Positions 2,661 through 56,130 of a stretch of DNA of 56,130 nt are shown here, one piece after another (position 1 is the stretch's first letter; each line of letters begins with the position of its first letter). Source of the stretch: Acidimicrobiia bacterium (GTDB lineage: Bacteria > Actinomycetota > Acidimicrobiia > UBA2766). A program made the translations under genes and the position numbers. Location: positions 1 to 56,130 of the forward strand of contig JAIBAC010000004.1 in NCBI GenBank assembly GCA_019695375.1, given 5' to 3'. The notes under the pieces are model-generated. The model was not told the DNA's origin, did not search any database, and saw nothing but the letters and a program-made list of their open reading frames with translations.

Positions 2661-4499
2661 ATGGGCGGGCTCAACAGGCGTCGGTTCCTGCAGGCGAGCA
2701 CGGCGGTCGCGCTCGCCTGGGGTCTGCCGGTCGACGTCGTCGCACGGTCCCTGGCACAGGAGCCCGACCCCGCCGACGTGACCTCGACACTGGTCGCCAC
2801 GATCCGCAAGGAGAGCGGCGGCGGGCCGTACAAGCGCCTCGTGCGACGGGCGGGCGACCCCTTCGTCGTGCGCGAGGACCTCCTGGGTGAGCCGCCCGCG
2901 CCGGGCCGGACGGCCGTGAGACGCAGCCTCGTCTACCTCGCCCAGTTCAGCGACGTCCACATCGTGGACGCCCAGTCCCCGGCACGGCTCGAGCCGTCGC
3001 AGCAGGCGGTGCGCAACGTGGGCACCGCCGGCGCCTTCCGCCCCCAGGAGACGCTGACCGTGCACGTCCTCGACCAGATGGTGCGTGCGGTCAACGACGC
3101 CGCGTCGAGCCCGGTCACCGGCGCCGCCCTCGCAGCGGCGGTCGTGACCGGTGACTCGGCCGACAGCCAGGCGTACGACGAGCTGCGCTGGTACATCGAC
3201 ACGCTCGACGGCGCCCCGGTGCGGCCCGACAGCGGAACCCCCGGTGTTTACGAGGGCGTGCAGGTCTGGGGTGAGGCCGCCTACGCCTATCACCCCGACG
3301 ACGCTGCATCGGACCTCTACGGCCGGTGGGGCTATCCCGACTACCCGGGCCTGCTCGAGGCAGCTGTCTCCACCGATGTGCACACCGCCGGGCTGCGCGT
3401 GCCCTGGTATGCCCTGTACGGCAACCACGACGCCACCCTCCTCGGTTTCCTGCCGGTGTCGTGGATGGCCGCGCAAGTGGCGCGCGGTGACACGAAGGCC
3501 TCGCTCGCGGCCGCGATGATGGGCGCGATCACGACTGGAGGCGCGTCGGCGGACGTGGCCGCCCGCCAGCTCTGGTCGCTCGGGTGGGGCAGTGCCCGCG
3601 GTGTTCGCGGGGTGCGCTCGGTGTCGAGCGACGAGCGCCGCCGCATCTTCGAACGCCTCGAGTTCGTCGACGCCCACTTCGACACGCCCGAGGTGCCCGG
3701 CCCGGTGGGCCACGGCTTCACGCCCGCCAACGTCGCCGCGGGAACGACGTGGTGGGCCCACGACATCGCGCCGCGGGTCCGCCTCATCGGCCTCGACACG
3801 TGCAACGTGACGACCGGTGCCAACGGCTGCCTGTCCCGGTCCCAGTGGGACTGGCTCGAAGCCGAACTGCGGTCGGCATCGTCGCGCTACCTCGACGATG
3901 CCGGCACGGTGGTCTCACACGACGCAGTGGACAAGATCGTGATCGTCGCCAGCCACCACACGAGCTGGACGATGGACAACAACGCCCAGCCCGCCCTCGG
4001 CCCGCACGAGCTGCTGCACACCGGCGACGAGGTCGTCGCCATGTTCCTGCGCTTCCCCAACGTCGTGGCGTGGCTCAACGGCCACACCCACTACAACCGC
4101 ATCGTCGCCCACCCGGCCGCTACCGGCGGGGGAGCGGGGTTCTGGGAGATCAACACGGCGTCGTGCATCGACTACGGCCAGCAGCAGCGTCTCGTCGAGG
4201 TCGTCGACAACCGTGACGGGACGCTGTCGCTGTTCACGATCTCGCTCGATCACCTGGGCCGTACGCGTCCGGTGCCGGGCGACACGTCGGTGGAGAACCT
4301 TGCCGGTATCAGCCGCGAGCTGTCGGCCAACCACTGGTTCGTCCAACCCGACATCCGCATCGGGTCGCGCAACGACCGGAACACTGAGCTGCTCGTGCGG
4401 GCGCCGTTCGACCTCTCGGTCCTCGGTGACGCCGAGATCGAGGCCGCGCAGATGGCGAACCGGGCGCGTCTGCTCGCTCGTGGCGGTGGTGCCGAGTGA
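2661..4499 (+). CDS. Tat-exported metallophosphoesterase, PPA1498-type (TIGR03767-like)
   Basis: The protein is 612 aa. The N-terminus NRRRFLQ followed by a hydrophobic stretch ([13 protein letters not shown]) is a twin-arginine signal, and export in folded form fits a metal enzyme. Calcineurin-like metal motifs are spread far apart by inserts: FSDVH (D98, H100), GNHD (254-257), SHHTSW near the middle, and NGHTH (GHTH 474-477). A TIGR family of actinobacterial phosphoesterases named after PPA1498 of Propionibacterium acnes has exactly this arrangement of Tat signal plus long inserts between pfam00149 motifs. The substrate is unknown. The start is fixed by the RR motif and by a -10 box 10 bases upstream. 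Its stop overlaps the start of the next gene (GTGA), so the lipoprotein downstream is probably translationally coupled. Confidence 0.82.
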
Positions 4500-5506: not shown

Positions 5507-5995
5507 ATGCCCAGCTTCGACGTCGTCAGCGAACTGAACATGCACGAGGTCACCAACGCCGTCGACCAGGCGGCGCGGGAGATCGCCACGCGTTTCGACT
5601 TCAAGAACACGGGGTCGACGATCGAGCTCGGCGACGGCGAGGTGCGCCTCGCGTCGAAGAACGAGGACCGCCTCGGTGCCGCCCGCGAGGTGCTCAAGGA
5701 GAAGTTCGTGCGCCGCAAGGTGTCGCTGAAGTCGCTCGAGTTCGGCAAGGTCGAGGAGGCCTCGGGCGCCACGGTGCGCCAGGTCGTCGCGCTCAAGGCC
5801 GGCATCGACTCGGACAAGGCCCGCGAGCTGAACAAGTTCGTCAAGGGTCTCGGGCTCAAGGGCGTGCAGTCCCAGACCCAGGGCGAACAGCTCCGCATCA
5901 CCTCGAAAAAGCGCGACGACCTCCAGAAGGTCATGTCCGCCCTGCGCGAGGGCGACTTCGGCATACCCCTCCAGTTCACCAACCGCCGCGACTGA
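5507..5995 (+). CDS. yajQ: YajQ family nucleotide-binding protein (DUF520)
   Basis: The protein is 162 aa, the normal length for the family. It starts with MPSFDVVSELNMHEVTNAVDQ and contains the signature TRFDFKNTGSTIEL near residue 30-45, then LKSLEFGKVEEASG and a C-terminal FGIPLQFTNRRD. YajQ proteins have two ferredoxin-like half-domains. They bind nucleic acids or nucleotides, and some bind cyclic di-GMP (established for a Xanthomonas member). The longer frame that begins at 5318 overlaps the membrane protein and lacks family similarity, so ATG 5507 was chosen; a -10 box lies 8 bases ahead of it. The gene converges on ettA, with a 62-bp repeat array filling the space between. Confidence 0.92.
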   Translation: MPSFDVVSELNMHEVTNAVDQAAREIATRFDFKNTGSTIELGDGEVRLASKNEDRLGAAREVLKEKFVRRKVSLKSLEFGKVEEASGATVRQVVALKAGIDSDKARELNKFVKGLGLKGVQSQTQGEQLRITSKKRDDLQKVMSALREGDFGIPLQFTNRRD

Positions 5996-6008
5996 CCCAC
6001 GACGGGGC

Positions 6009-6194
6009 GTGAATCGCACGTGGGGACGTGAAGTGCGCTGTGAGCGCGTTCTGCGTCCCCACGTCGGGGGGTGAATCGCACGTGGGGACGTGAAGTGCGC
6101 TGTGAGCGCGTTCTGCGTCCCCACGTCGGGGGGTGAATCGCACGTGGGGACGTGAAGTGCGCTGTGAGCGCGTTCTGCGTCCCCACGTCGGGGA
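6009..6194. repeat. Tandem array, three identical 62-bp units with nested hairpins (family A, locus 1)
   Basis: Three units start at 6009, 6071 and 6133 and are identical base for base. A degenerate fourth edge (CCCACGACGGGGC) precedes them at about 5997. Each unit contains GACGTGGGGACG and, 25 bases on, its exact reverse complement CGTCCCCACGTC, giving a 12-bp stem. Within the loop GCGCT-GTG-AGCGC forms a second hairpin. The array fills the whole space between the converging yajQ and ettA and ends at the base before the ettA stop codon. The same 62-bp period and core recur at 23641-23907 and 55757-55880. It is not a CRISPR: there are no unique spacers. It could act as a bidirectional terminator. 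Confidence 0.93.
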
Positions 6195-7988: not shown

Positions 7989-10727
7989 GTGACGACAGAA
8001 CCCACCGACCCCGCGCTCCCCGGTTCGCGCGCCCAGCGGGACTACCACACGCTCGACGTGGACCAAGTGGCGGCAGCCCTCGGTGTAGTCCTCGACCGCG
8101 GCCTCGACGACGGCGAGGCCGCCGGACGCCTCGCCGATGTGGGTCCGAACCGCCTCGACGAGGCTCCGCCGCGTTCGAAGCTGCTGGTATTCGTGGACCA
8201 GTTCCGCAGCCTGCTGATCGTGGTCCTCGCAGCAGCCGCAGCCGTCGCGGCACTGATCGGCCACGTGACCGACGCTCTCATCGTCCTGTTCGTGCTGCTT
8301 CTCAACGCCGTCCTCGGCTACATCCAGGAGAACCGCGCGGCGTCGAGCATGGAGACCCTGCGGCGCATGCTGGCGTGGCACACACGCGTGCGCCGTGACG
8401 GCGCGGTGCGCGAGATCGACACGACCGACGTGGTGCCCGGTGACGTCGTGCTGCTCGACGCGGGTGACAAGGTTCCTGCCGACGGGCGCCTCGTGTCGGC
8501 GACGAACCTCGCCGTCGACGAGTCGACGCTCACCGGCGAGTCCGAGCCCGTGGACAAGTCCGCGGATGCGGTGTCGGGGCCGGAGGCCGCACTCGGCGAC
8601 CGCACGTCGATGGTCCACATGAACACCGTGGTAACCCGTGGCCGTGGCGAGATGGTCGTGACCGCCACGGGGATGGACACCGAGATGGGCGCGATCGCGG
8701 GGATGCTGTCGTCGGTGGAGCCCGAGAGCACGCCGTTGCAACGCCAGCTCGACCACCTCGGCCGCCGTCTGGCCGCGGTTGCGGGCATCGCCGTGGTCGT
8801 CGTCATGGGTTTGAGCCTCGCGCTCGGCGACACCATCGGCAACGCCATGATCGACGCGATCGCCCTCGCCATCGCCGCGGTACCCGAAGGCCTGCCGGCC
8901 GTCGTGACCGTGACCCTTGCTGTCGGCGTCTCCCAGATGGCGAAGCGACGCGCGATCCTGCGGCGCCTCGCGTCGGTCGAGACGCTCGGTGCGACGACCG
9001 TCATCTGCAGCGACAAGACCGGCACGCTCACCATGAACCAGATGACGGCGGTGCACGTGTGGCGCAACGGGCTCGACGTGACCGTCACAGGAGCCGGTTA
9101 TTCGTCAGCCGGCGAACTGCTGGCCGGCGGCGCCCCCCTCGAGTCGGGGACCCTGGACCCGGTGCTCGTGCCGCTCGCCCTGTGCTCCGAAGCGGTCGTT
9201 CGCGACGGCGAGCTCGTCGGCGAACCCACCGACGGGGCCCTCGTCACCCTCGCGGCGAAGGGCGGGGTCGACGTCGACGCAGTGCGAAGCGAGTACCGAC
9301 GCATCGCCGAGATCCCCTTCGAATCGGCCGCGAAGTACATGGCGACGTTCACTCAGGACGACGGCGGCGCAGTTCTCGTCGCTGCAAAGGGTGCGCCCGA
9401 CGTGCTCGTCGAGCGCTGCGATCTGGAACCGCCCGCGCTGCAGGCGGCTCTGGCGCACACCGAAGCCCTCGCCGGTGATGGCCTGCGGGTGCTCGCGGTC
9501 GCGACGCAGTCGGTCGATCAGGCCACCTTCGACACCGCGCTGGCAGCCGGCGACCTCGGCTCGCTCGTGCGCGGCTTGCACCTCGAGGCGCTCGTCGGAG
9601 TCGTCGATCCACCACGGCCGGAGGTCCGTGACGCCATCCGTCTGTGCCGCAGCGCCGGGATCGACGTGAAGATGATCACCGGCGACCACGCGCTGACCGC
9701 CGCCGCGATCGCGGCGGATCTCGACATCCGCGGCAGCGTCGTCACCGGCGCCGAGTTGGATGCCCTCGACGATGCCGAACTGGAGGCCGCGATCCCCGGG
9801 ATCGGGGTCTGCGCCCGTGTGCGTCCCCAGCACAAGGTGCGGTTGGTGCGAGCCCTCAAGGACAGGGGAGAGGTCGTCGCGATGACCGGCGACGGCGTCA
9901 ACGACGCGCCGGCGCTCAAGGCGGCCGACATCGGCGTCGCGATGGGGATCACGGGCACCGAGGTCACCAAAGAGGCCGCCGACATGGTCCTCGCCGACGA
10001 CGACTTCGCGACGATCGTCGGTGCCGTCAAGCGTGGACGCACGATCTACGACAACATCCTCACGTTCGTGCGGTTCCAGCTCGCGACCAACTTCGGCGCG
10101 ATCGGGACCATCCTGCTGGCGCGGCTGCTACGCATGCCGACGCCGCTCGAACCGATCCAGATCCTCCTCGTGAACCTGATCATGGACGGCCCCCCCGCGA
10201 TCGCGCTGGGTGTCGACCCGCCGCGGCCCAACGCGATGTCGCTCCCCCCGCGCGACCCGCAGGCGGCGATCCTCGACGCGCCGCGGATCACCAGGCTGCT
10301 GTGGGTCGGGTTCGTGATGATGGTGGGGACCGTATCGATGTTCGCCTGGGGACGCAGCGACGGCAACGAGGAGCAGGGCGTGACGCTCGCGTTCGCGACG
10401 TTCGTGCTCTTCCAGGTGGCCAACGCCCTGCTGTCCCGCACCGAGCGACGCAGCGTCTTCGGAAGGCACACGCTCACGAACCGCTACCTGTGGATCGCGC
10501 TGGCGGCCGTGATCGCGCTGCTGGTCGTGGTCGTGAGCGTTCCCGCTCTGCACGGGCTCTTCAAGACCACCTCCCTCTCGGCACCGCAATGGGCCGCAGC
10601 GGTGCTCACCGCGTCGACGCTCGTCTGGCTCGAGGAGCTGCGCAAGCTGTGGCTGCGGGCCGTCGACGCCGCCGCGACACGCAAGAGCGCGTCGGCAGCG
10701 GACGCAGTCGCCGAGATCGACGGCTGA
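7989..10727 (+). CDS. P2-type cation-transporting ATPase (calcium-ATPase-like)
   Basis: The protein is 912 aa, an integral membrane cation pump. An N-terminal cation-ATPase domain is followed by TM1-2, the actuator loop TGES (182-185), TM3-4 with PEGLPA, the phosphorylated Asp342 in CSDKTGTLT, the nucleotide-binding domain with KGAPD, the hinge TGDGVNDAPALK, and six C-terminal TM helices. PEGLPAVVT in TM4 and NLIMDGPPAIALG in TM6 are the ion-site motifs of SERCA/PMA1-type pumps. In TM6 the SERCA Thr799 position is Met here, so calcium is likely but manganese or another ion is possible. Start GTG 7989 gives the expected N-terminus and sits 8 bases after a -10 box. It converges on the SDR gene with only 5 bp between the stops. 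Confidence 0.9.
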   Translation: MTTEPTDPALPGSRAQRDYHTLDVDQVAAALGVVLDRGLDDGEAAGRLADVGPNRLDEAPPRSKLLVFVDQFRSLLIVVLAAAAAVAALIGHVTDALIVLFVLLLNAVLGYIQENRAASSMETLRRMLAWHTRVRRDGAVREIDTTDVVPGDVVLLDAGDKVPADGRLVSATNLAVDESTLTGESEPVDKSADAVSGPEAALGDRTSMVHMNTVVTRGRGEMVVTATGMDTEMGAIAGMLSSVEPESTPLQRQLDHLGRRLAAVAGIAVVVVMGLSLALGDTIGNAMIDAIALAIAAVPEGLPAVVTVTLAVGVSQMAKRRAILRRLASVETLGATTVICSDKTGTLTMNQMTAVHVWRNGLDVTVTGAGYSSAGELLAGGAPLESGTLDPVLVPLALCSEAVVRDGELVGEPTDGALVTLAAKGGVDVDAVRSEYRRIAEIPFESAAKYMATFTQDDGGAVLVAAKGAPDVLVERCDLEPPALQAALAHTEALAGDGLRVLAVATQSVDQATFDTALAAGDLGSLVRGLHLEALVGVVDPPRPEVRDAIRLCRSAGIDVKMITGDHALTAAAIAADLDIRGSVVTGAELDALDDAELEAAIPGIGVCARVRPQHKVRLVRALKDRGEVVAMTGDGVNDAPALKAADIGVAMGITGTEVTKEAADMVLADDDFATIVGAVKRGRTIYDNILTFVRFQLATNFGAIGTILLARLLRMPTPLEPIQILLVNLIMDGPPAIALGVDPPRPNAMSLPPRDPQAAILDAPRITRLLWVGFVMMVGTVSMFAWGRSDGNEEQGVTLAFATFVLFQVANALLSRTERRSVFGRHTLTNRYLWIALAAVIALLVVVVSVPALHGLFKTTSLSAPQWAAAVLTASTLVWLEELRKLWLRAVDAAATRKSASAADAVAEIDG

Positions 10728-23640: not shown

Positions 23641-23907
23641 CCGGAGCCCCACGTAGGGGTGGGTGCTGGGACGTGGGGACGCAGATCGTGCTGTGACGCC
23701 GTTTCGCGTCCCCACGTGGGGTGGGTGCTGGGACGTGGGGACGCAGATCGTGCTGTGACGCCGTTTCGCGTCCCCACGTGGGGTGGGTGCTGGGACGTGG
23801 GGACGCAGATCGTGCTGTGACGCCGTTTCGCGTCCCCACGTGGGGTGGGTGCTGGGACGTGGGGACGCAGATCGCGTTGTGACGCCGTTTCGCGTCCCCA
23901 CGTGGAG
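23641..23907. repeat. Tandem array, four 62-bp units (family A, locus 2) between tRNA-Gly and tRNA-Pro
   Basis: Units begin (GCTGGGACG) at 23665, 23727, 23789 and 23851, exactly 62 bp apart, after a partial unit at the left edge. The first three are identical; the fourth differs in the loop (ATCGCGTTG instead of ATCGTGCTG). Each has ACGTGGGGACGC and its reverse complement GCGTCCCCACGT about 23 bases apart. The loop differs from locus 1 but keeps CTGTGA and GTT. The array ends within a base or two of the tRNA-Pro 3' end and lies upstream of tRNA-Gly, so transcripts of the tRNA pair would pass through it. Confidence 0.92.
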
Positions 23908-23981
23908 TCGGGCAGGCCGGATTTGAACCGGCGACCCCCACGTCCCAAACGTGGTGCGCTGCCAAACTGCGCCACTGCCCG
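23908..23981 (-). tRNA. tRNA-Pro (anticodon TGG)
   Basis: A 74-nt tRNA. Acceptor CGGGCAG pairs with CTGCCCG, the anticodon arm CCACG-TTTGGGA-CGTGG holds TGG, and the T arm is GCCGGTTCAAATCCGGC. Discriminator A; CCA is not encoded. The repeat array abuts its 3' end. Confidence 0.93.
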
Positions 23982-45412: not shown

Positions 45413-45600
45413 AGCCCCGTCCCAAACTCGGGCGGGGGTGGCCCCGTCCCAAACGCGGGCGGGGGTGGCCCCGTCCCAAACGCGGGCGGGTTGACCCGTG
45501 TGCGGGCGATTCTGCCCGCGTTTGTGGGTGGCCCCGTCCCAAACGCGGGCGGGATGACCCGTGTGCGGGCGATTCTGCCCGCGTTCGGGGGGAGAGGCAG
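45413..45600 (+). repeat. Tandem array of 27-bp and 63-bp palindromic units (family B) between rpmA and obgE
   Basis: The unit CCCCGTCCCAAACGCGGGC starts at 45442, 45469 and 45532 (a first degenerate copy with AAACTCGGGC begins near 45416). Two short 27-bp units are followed by two 63-bp units. In each long unit AAACGCGGGC and GCCCGCGTTT form a 10-bp stem around an inner CCCG-TGTG-CGGG hairpin; alternatively GCGGGC-GATTCT-GCCCGC can pair. The second long unit ends in the purine-rich RBS region of obgE. Sequence is unrelated to the 62-bp family, but size and nested design are the same. Confidence 0.9.
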
Positions 45601-55756: not shown

Positions 55757-55880
55757 CGGTGGGTGGCTGGGACGTGGGGACGTAGATCGCGCTGTGAGGT
55801 CGTTTTGCGTCCCCACGTGGGTGGGTGGCTGGGACGTGGGGACGTAGATCGCGTTGTGAGGTCGTTTTGCGTCCCCACGT
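55757..55880. repeat. Tandem array, two 62-bp units (family A, locus 3)
   Basis: Units begin (GGCTGGGACG) at 55765 and 55827. The core ACGTGGGGACG pairs with CGTCCCCACGT 25 bases on, and the loop keeps TCGCGCTGTGA, or TCGCGTTGTGA in the second unit. The right end (CCCCACGTGTGGGG) runs directly into the 94-bp repeat. The array lies upstream of the histidine kinase start. Confidence 0.9.
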
Positions 55881-56130
55881 GTGGGGTGGCATGCCGAGGT
55901 GCTTCCTCTCTGGACGTCCGCGAGTGGTGGTGTGTGGTTCGCAGGGTCCGTAGGAGGAAGCGCCGAGCGCCTCTGTGGGGTGGCAGGCCGAGGTGCTTCC
56001 TCTCTGGACGTCCGCGAGTGGTGGTGTGTGGTTCGCAGGGTCCGTAGGAGGAAGCGCCGAGCGCCTTTGTGGGGTGGCAGGCCGAGGTGCTTCCTCTCTG
56101 GACGTCCGCGAGTGGTGGTGTGTGGTTCGC
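55881..56130. repeat. Tandem array of 94-bp units (family C), running off the window
   Basis: Units beginning GTGGGGTGGC start at 55881, 55975 and 56069, exactly 94 bp apart; the third is cut by the window edge. Copies differ by only a few bases (ATGCCG or AGGCCG; CCTCTG or CCTTTG). Each can fold: GCTTCCTC pairs with GAGGAAGC near the other end, GGAC with GTCC inside that, and GCGA with TCGC innermost. The array length outside the window is unknown. Confidence 0.88.

What the first reader, a model, noticed from the sequence alone, without database searches (positions are those of the whole stretch)
6009..6194. A 62-bp imperfect-palindrome repeat family recurs at three separate intergenic sites
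Arrays with exactly the same 62-bp period and the shared core ACGTGGGGACG / CGTCCCCACGT plus CTGTGA and GTT in the loop occur at 6009 (3 units), 23665 (4 units) and 55765 (2 units). Units within an array are nearly identical while arrays differ in their loops, so copies within an array are being homogenised or were made recently, but the family is older. This looks like a dispersed, self-similar element (REP- or BIME-like), not a random repeat. I do not know a published name for it.
Basis: partly seen in the sequence, partly recalled or inferred. Interest (0 to 1): 0.8.

Follow-up and report, generated by a model that had tools for sequence, protein, structure and literature searches.

The report
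REP-like hairpins duplicated at fixed length
The three repeat arrays belong to a large family of 49-bp hairpin DNA elements scattered in well over 40 places of this bacterium's genome, mostly just behind gene ends, that look like known bacterial 'REP' repeats but lack the usual REP transposase and appear to multiply on the spot by duplicating a window of almost constant length (62 or 72 bp) together with a little neighbouring DNA.

Summary
The unit is a 49-bp imperfect palindrome, GACGTGGGGACG-N25-CGTCCCCACGTC. The host draft genome holds 138 exact-stem copies (164 with up to 3 mismatches; reversed-pattern control 8). The 50 array loci read have 125 units, all with a 25-nt loop; period 62 (66 of 75), 72 (6), 63 (2) or 61 (1). 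Stems are nearly invariant (1.25% between arrays) while loops differ by 31%. Arrays are enriched between convergent genes (22/41 against 34/238), median 7 nt from a gene 3' end, like REPs. Two species of a sister genus carry homologous elements (ACGTGGG-N33-CCCACGT, same 47-bp geometry, different inner stem); other class members show 0-2 chance hits. No Y1/RAYT transposase model hits this genome or either sister.

New point: spacers inside an array are local flank, not element sequence. They combine the start of the right flank and the end of the left flank (exact match 7.1 of 13 nt; control 2.1, maximum 2.7), repeated independently in the sister genus (6.1; control 1.6, maximum 3.4). So arrays arise in situ by homology-independent tandem duplication of a near-constant 61-63 or 71-72 bp window. 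A REP-like element without RAYT and with a length-constrained amplification step: a new variant of a known kind.

The parts
5996..6193 (+). Array A1: 3 head-to-tail 62-bp periods; 49-bp units at 6017-6065, 6079-6127, 6141-6189
   Evidence: TRF; unit scan; lies between yajQ stop (5995) and ettA stop (6195), convergent
23647..23905 (+). Array A2: 4 periods; units at 23670-23718, 23732-23780, 23794-23842, 23856-23904
   Evidence: TRF; ends 2-3 nt from the 3' end of tRNA-Pro (23907-23981, minus strand)
55758..55881 (+). Array A3: 2 periods; units at 55771-55819, 55833-55881
   Evidence: TRF; spacer identical to the 13 nt of left flank
6066..6078 (+). Spacer of array A1 (GGGGGGTGAATCG): matches left flank (8-nt suffix) plus right flank (4-nt prefix)
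23719..23731 (+). Spacer of array A2 (GGGTGGGTGCTGG): identical to the 13 nt of left flank
55820..55832 (+). Spacer of array A3 (GGTGGGTGGCTGG): identical to the 13 nt of left flank
5507..5995 (+). yajQ, gene upstream of array A1
   Evidence: NCBIfam NF003819, 198.9 bits
6195..7898 (-). ettA (ABC-F), convergent gene downstream of array A1
   Evidence: NCBIfam NF008775, 904 bits
23907..23981 (-). tRNA-Pro(TGG), whose 3' end abuts array A2
   Evidence: ARAGORN; Rfam RF00005

Best explanation
The repeats are a RAYT-less, REP-like family of small mobile hairpin elements. SHOWN: a 49-bp palindromic unit with a nearly invariant 12-bp stem and a length-fixed 25-nt semi-palindromic loop is dispersed at dozens of loci, mainly just behind gene 3' ends, and many arrays consist of one unit tandemly duplicated together with 13 (or 23) bp of the local flank, so that total length is almost constant (61-63 or 71-72 bp) while the share taken from left and right flank varies. 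INFERRED: single units are copied to new sites by an unidentified trans-acting system that recognises the stem, and survive where no promoter or ribosome-binding site is hit. At the new site two staggered nicks on opposite strands about 62 or 72 nt apart, spanning the extruded hairpin or a bound complex, are filled in and joined. This gives a homology-independent tandem duplication of that length; the 10-bp step between the two classes suggests a ruler on helical DNA. Whether the hairpins then also serve the cell (3'-end protection, termination) is open.
For: Dispersal: 138 exact, 164 near copies against 8 control, 50 array loci, loop 25 nt in 125/125. Sequence-specific constraint: stem divergence 1.25% against loop 31% between arrays, with only one-base stem departures in the units read. 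Placement: 22 of 41 arrays convergent against 34 of 238 gaps, p = 1.5e-7; median 7 nt to the nearest 3' end; residual convergent gap 19.5 bp, matching the 23-bp median of convergent gaps in the sample. Mobility: four orthologous gene 3' ends visible in the sister genomes carry no element. In-situ duplication: spacer = right-flank prefix + left-flank suffix, 7.09 nt against control 2.08 (maximum of 200 shuffles 2.66); repeated in the sister genus, 6.12 against 1.64 (maximum of 500 shuffles 3.40) with spacers 14-15 or 24-25. No microhomology needed: prefix+suffix exceeds spacer length by at most 1 nt in 21 resolved arrays. Periods cluster at 61-63 and 71-72 in three species. The one array found inside a gene (dnaX) has the 72-bp period, which keeps the reading frame where 62 would not. 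De novo short tandem duplications without pre-existing repeats occur in E. coli topA mutants, for which adjacent nicks are one proposed cause (PMC6954433).
Against: No mobilising enzyme was found; only Y1_Tnp was tested. No empty-site/filled-site pair for the same intergenic region could be shown. About half of the arrays have flanks that no longer match the spacer well. The near-constant period could instead be a selected property. Insertions leave no visible target-site duplication at the few single-unit loci, so the insertion chemistry is unknown. Staggered nicking is not observed directly, and the E. coli duplications cited were only 2-19 bp.
Confidence: 0.58

Rival explanations
1. Sequence-specific binding-site arrays: the palindrome is a double-stranded site for a chromosome-organising or regulatory protein, and the 61-63/71-72 bp spacing is selected so that sites lie on one face of the helix.
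For: Stem sequence, not only pairing, is conserved, with almost no compensatory changes; invariant 47-bp span of the half-sites in three species with diverged inner stem; period classes 10 bp apart; unit orientation independent of gene direction.
Against: Spacers copied from local flanks show that the duplication itself delivers the length without microhomology; helical selection alone predicts 51-52 and 82-83 bp classes, which are absent; positions are not conserved between sister genera at the few sites seen.
Confidence: 0.2
2. Functional 3' hairpins: tandem bidirectional terminators or mRNA 3'-end barriers kept because they help the flanking genes.
For: Median 7 nt from gene 3' ends, convergent enrichment, one array abutting a tRNA 3' end; stable RNA hairpins on both strands, -21 to -36 kcal/mol.
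Against: No U-tract follows the hairpins in the sequence; only a small minority of convergent gaps carry an element, most being short (median 23 bp) with none; the placement is equally expected from insertion plus purging at promoters. RNA function would allow compensatory stem changes, which are hardly seen.
Confidence: 0.15
3. A classical REP/BIME family mobilised by a RAYT.
For: Dispersed palindromic repeats at 3' ends with REP-like distribution (PMC3733652).
Against: PF01797 has no match at E<=1 in the host (91% complete) or in two sister genomes (98%, 87%), while the control search works in 10 of 14 genomes; no unpaired GTAG/CGTC tag; 25-nt loop.
Confidence: 0.05
4. Ordinary minisatellites: replication slippage expands any hairpin, and a common period only reflects descent of pre-formed arrays that were dispersed as arrays.
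For: Within-array homogeneity and variable copy number (1-4) are typical of VNTRs; MIRU-like loci exist in actinobacteria (own knowledge).
Against: Spacers match their own local flanks, so arrays formed after dispersal at each locus; no microhomology; the same length classes arise independently in another genus.
Confidence: 0.05

Closest known systems
REP elements, GTAG- and CGTC-tagged superfamilies (Di Nocera 2013, PMC3733652)
   Same: Short extragenic palindromes in high copy; between convergent or unidirectional genes, under 20 bp from 3' ends; several families per genome; CGTC type likewise without a dedicated transposase; occasionally inside DNA-replication genes
   Different: REPs are 20-40 bp with stems of 6-13 bp, mostly short (2-5 nt) loops and an unpaired tag; mainly HH/TT dimers, HT absent or rare; flanking segments in tandem clusters of variable length; the phyla named there do not include Actinobacteria. 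Here 47-50 bp, 11-12 bp stem, 25-28 nt loop, head-to-tail arrays, near-constant 62/72-bp duplication
REPINs and their tandem clusters (Bertels and Rainey 2011, PMC3116915)
   Same: Ordered clusters are tandem repeats of nearly identical elements including flanking sequence; the authors infer a second mechanism for cluster formation
   Different: REPINs are doublets of two REPs linked to RAYTs; no near-constant duplication length independent of flank is described in the passages I read
BIME-2 arrays of enterobacteria
   Same: Tandem arrays of intergenic palindromic units (own knowledge)
   Different: Mosaic of alternating REP units, RAYT-bearing hosts (own knowledge); not compared here in sequence
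MIRU/VNTR loci of mycobacteria
   Same: Dispersed intergenic tandem arrays of about 50-100 bp in actinobacteria (own knowledge)
   Different: Not known to me as near-perfect hairpins or as flank-copying; not tested here

Membership tests
REP element | Extragenic, palindromic, high-copy, highly similar | tested here: met
REP element | Located close (<20 bp) to gene 3' ends, convergent or unidirectional gaps | tested here: met
   criterion from PMC3733652
REP element | 20-40 bp with short loop | tested here: not met
   49 bp, loop 25 nt in 125/125 units
REP element | Unpaired GTAG or CGTC tag at one end | tested here: not met
   Unit ends are paired GAC/GTC; no GTAG; CGTC occurs only inside the paired stem and is absent from the sister-genome stems
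REP element (GTAG type) / REPIN | RAYT (Y1 transposase) in the genome | tested here: not met
   PF01797: no match in host or two sisters; genomes are drafts, host 91% complete
REPIN | Two inverted REPs as the mobile unit | tested here: not met
   Units are single hairpins in direct orientation within each array
MITE | Target-site duplication at insertions | tested here: inconclusive
   No consistent duplication at 7 single-unit loci, two of which are cut by contig ends
CRISPR | Unique spacers between identical repeats | tested here: not met
   Spacers are (nearly) identical within each array
Known Rfam RNA | Match above gathering score | tested here: not met
   Only tRNAs in the window
Intrinsic terminator | U-tract after the hairpin | tested here: not met
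   Right sides are G-rich, left sides local flank without a T-run

The most novel reading that the evidence does not exclude
A dedicated or recruited nicking activity measures about 62 or 72 bp (six or seven helical turns) around a sequence-specific hairpin and duplicates exactly that window by fill-in and end joining, so bacterial palindromic repeats can spread locally by a fixed-length, homology-independent 'copy-in-place' mechanism distinct from RAYT transposition and from slippage.
Probability: 0.25. Interest if true: 0.82.

Novelty: new variant of a known kind. Interest (0 to 1): 0.6.

Why it matters
How REP-type repeats without a transposase multiply is an open question (stated for CGTC REPs in PMC3733652), and the REPIN authors inferred an unexplained second mechanism for tandem clusters (PMC3116915). 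Here the spacer/flank signature records the duplication event itself, in two genera, and gives testable numbers: length 62 or 72, no microhomology, variable split. It turns the origin of palindromic arrays into a measurable reaction, and shows that a species-specific stem can change while the 47-bp geometry stays.

Tried and rejected
RAYT/Y1 transposase: none. Rfam: only tRNAs. The exact stem in 84,980 named genomes: 7 unrelated chance hits; in viral contigs: 0. A first own-genome pattern with wrong spacing gave 0 and was corrected. RNA-structure selection in the loop: covariation is absent, indeed conserved mismatches dominate, so an RNA model was not pursued. Orientation against gene direction: no correlation (7 same, 10 opposite). 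Genes lying between units at L069, L070 and L074 (ferredoxin reductase, ABC transporter, leuCD and others) are ordinary, no transposase. Conserved position at yajQ could not be tested: no yajQ match in G002/G003. Transposon-like target duplication as the source of the spacers: rejected because spacers combine both flanks. Literature searches on Acidimicrobiia palindromic repeats and on actinobacterial tandem hairpins found nothing relevant.

Full report
OBSERVATION. The three arrays are real: 62-bp period, 3.2, 4.2 and 2.2 copies, 95-98% matches. The 11-bp cores are found nowhere else in the window. Folded as RNA, single units reach -21 to -36 kcal/mol on either strand, z -3.5 to -6.0.

GENOME-WIDE FAMILY. 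In the window's own draft genome (3.48 Mb, 332 contigs, 91% complete) the stem pair occurs 138 times exactly, with 0 for the reversed control, and 164 times with up to three mismatches against 8 for the control. I fetched the loci and read 50 arrays or single units with 125 units in all: loop length 25 throughout; period 62 in 66 of 75 intervals, 72 in 6, 63 in 2, 61 in 1. Between arrays the stem differs by 1.25% per site and the loop by 31%; within arrays loops differ by 5%. A scan of 84,980 named genomes gives seven unrelated chance hits (records very near the window's genome may have been left out by the tool). Viral contigs: none.

RELATIVES. The outer half of the stem with the same geometry, ACGTGGG-N33-CCCACGT, is abundant in two other species of the same family (59 and 37-39 copies), absent in a third genus of the family and at 0-2 copies elsewhere in the class. 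Inner stem and loop are species-specific (GACG here, CGTA in G002, YGGAT in G003). The host carries further hairpin families of similar build: B, CCAAACGCGGG-N28-CCCGCGTTTGG, 101 copies of its core and present as a family only in this genome among 395; C, GTCTCGGCGCG-N24; F, a 94-bp unit with 50 BLAST matches.

CONTEXT. With a home-made codon-usage gene caller, 22 of 41 A arrays with both neighbours lie between convergent genes, 17 between co-directional, 2 between divergent genes; all gaps in the sampled genome: 34 convergent of 238 (Fisher p = 1.5e-7). The median distance to the nearest 3' end is 7 nt. Array A2 ends 2-3 nt from the 3' end of a tRNA-Pro gene. Convergent gaps with an array have a residual 19.5 bp, close to the 23-bp median of convergent gaps in the sample, so the placement fits insertion into existing short gaps and purging elsewhere. 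Orientation does not follow gene direction. Four orthologous gene 3' ends visible in the sister genomes have no element. This is the distribution described for REPs (PMC3733652). One array sits in frame inside dnaX, with the 72-bp period, i.e. 24 codons.

STRUCTURE. In 89 distinct units the stem pairs hardly vary; paired loop positions 13-15/35-37 are mostly T.G, G.T, G.T or their reverse complements, and central pairs are G.G, C.C or T.T: mismatches are conserved and Watson-Crick pairing is below the independence expectation. So the unit has a polarity, and the constraint on it is on sequence, not on RNA pairing.

DUPLICATION SIGNATURE. If arrays were dispersed as arrays, spacers would be element sequence. 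Instead each spacer tends to begin like the array's own right flank and end like its own left flank: exact prefix plus suffix 7.09 nt on average against 2.08 when flanks are exchanged between arrays (maximum of 200 shuffles 2.66); best-split identity 0.70 against 0.49. In 21 resolved arrays the sum never exceeds the spacer by more than 1 nt, so there is no microhomology, and the right-hand share ranges from 0 to 10 nt. In the sister genus 17 arrays show the same: 6.12 against 1.64, maximum of 500 shuffles 3.40; spacers 14-15 or 24-25 nt, periods 61-62 or 71-72. So, in many arrays, one unit and 13 or 23 bp of local flank were tandemly duplicated in place, with near-constant total length.

MECHANISM. 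Shown: in-situ, homology-independent, near-fixed-length duplication; dispersal; stem constraint. Inferred: staggered nicks 62/72 nt apart, fill-in and joining. De novo tandem duplications without pre-existing repeats are known from E. coli topA mutants, and adjacent single-strand breaks are one proposed route (PMC6954433), but those are shorter (2-19 bp). Alternatively random duplications occur and selection keeps the helically spaced ones; the lack of other classes speaks mildly against this.

COMPARISON. By placement and copy number this works like a REP family; by length, loop, tag, dimer type and lack of RAYT it is not a member of the described GTAG/CGTC superfamilies. REPIN tandem clusters that include flanks (PMC3116915), and REP clusters with flanking DNA of variable length (PMC3733652), are the nearest precedents; the near-constant length is the difference. 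Verdict: real, new variant of a known kind, interest 0.6.

Noticed in passing
window 45414-45588: Array of a second hairpin family (CCAAACGCGGG-N28-CCCGCGTTTGG, 50 bp, period 63) preceded by 26-27-bp repeats that look like isolated left arms; 101 core copies in this genome, none as a family in the other class genomes searched.
   Followed up: partly
window 55880-56130: A 94-bp tandem hairpin family directly abuts array A3 and runs to the window's end, where the contig may break in the repeat; 50 BLAST matches genome-wide, also next to A units at L048 and L084.
   Followed up: partly
L062:1769-3367 (array 2931-3123): A three-unit A array with 72-bp period lies in frame inside dnaX (DNA polymerase III gamma/tau), giving three 24-residue repeats in the region after the conserved N-terminal part.
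   Followed up: partly
L099:5070-5115, 10029-10074; L104:1767-1812, 2409-2454: Third hairpin family GTCTCGGCGCG-N24-CGCGCCGAGAC (46 bp), with further single arms of the same sequence on either side.
   Followed up: no
89 distinct A units, loop positions 13-15/35-37 and 17/33, 21/29, 22/28: Mismatched pairs are conserved as mismatches (T.G, G.T, T.T, G.G and their reverse complements) and Watson-Crick pairs are rarer than expected from the columns; gives the unit a polarity whose role is unknown.
   Followed up: partly
window 23656-23680 and 55760-55780: Spacer plus stem start form runs such as GGGGTGGGTGCTGGGACGTGGGG, which fit the G-quadruplex motif on the plus strand.
   Followed up: no
G002 and G003 genomes (L129, L131-L133, L176, L177, L211-L230): Sister-genus elements with the same 47-bp geometry; G002 units often form nearly complete 20-bp arm palindromes with a 7-nt loop, unlike the mismatched host units.
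   Followed up: partly
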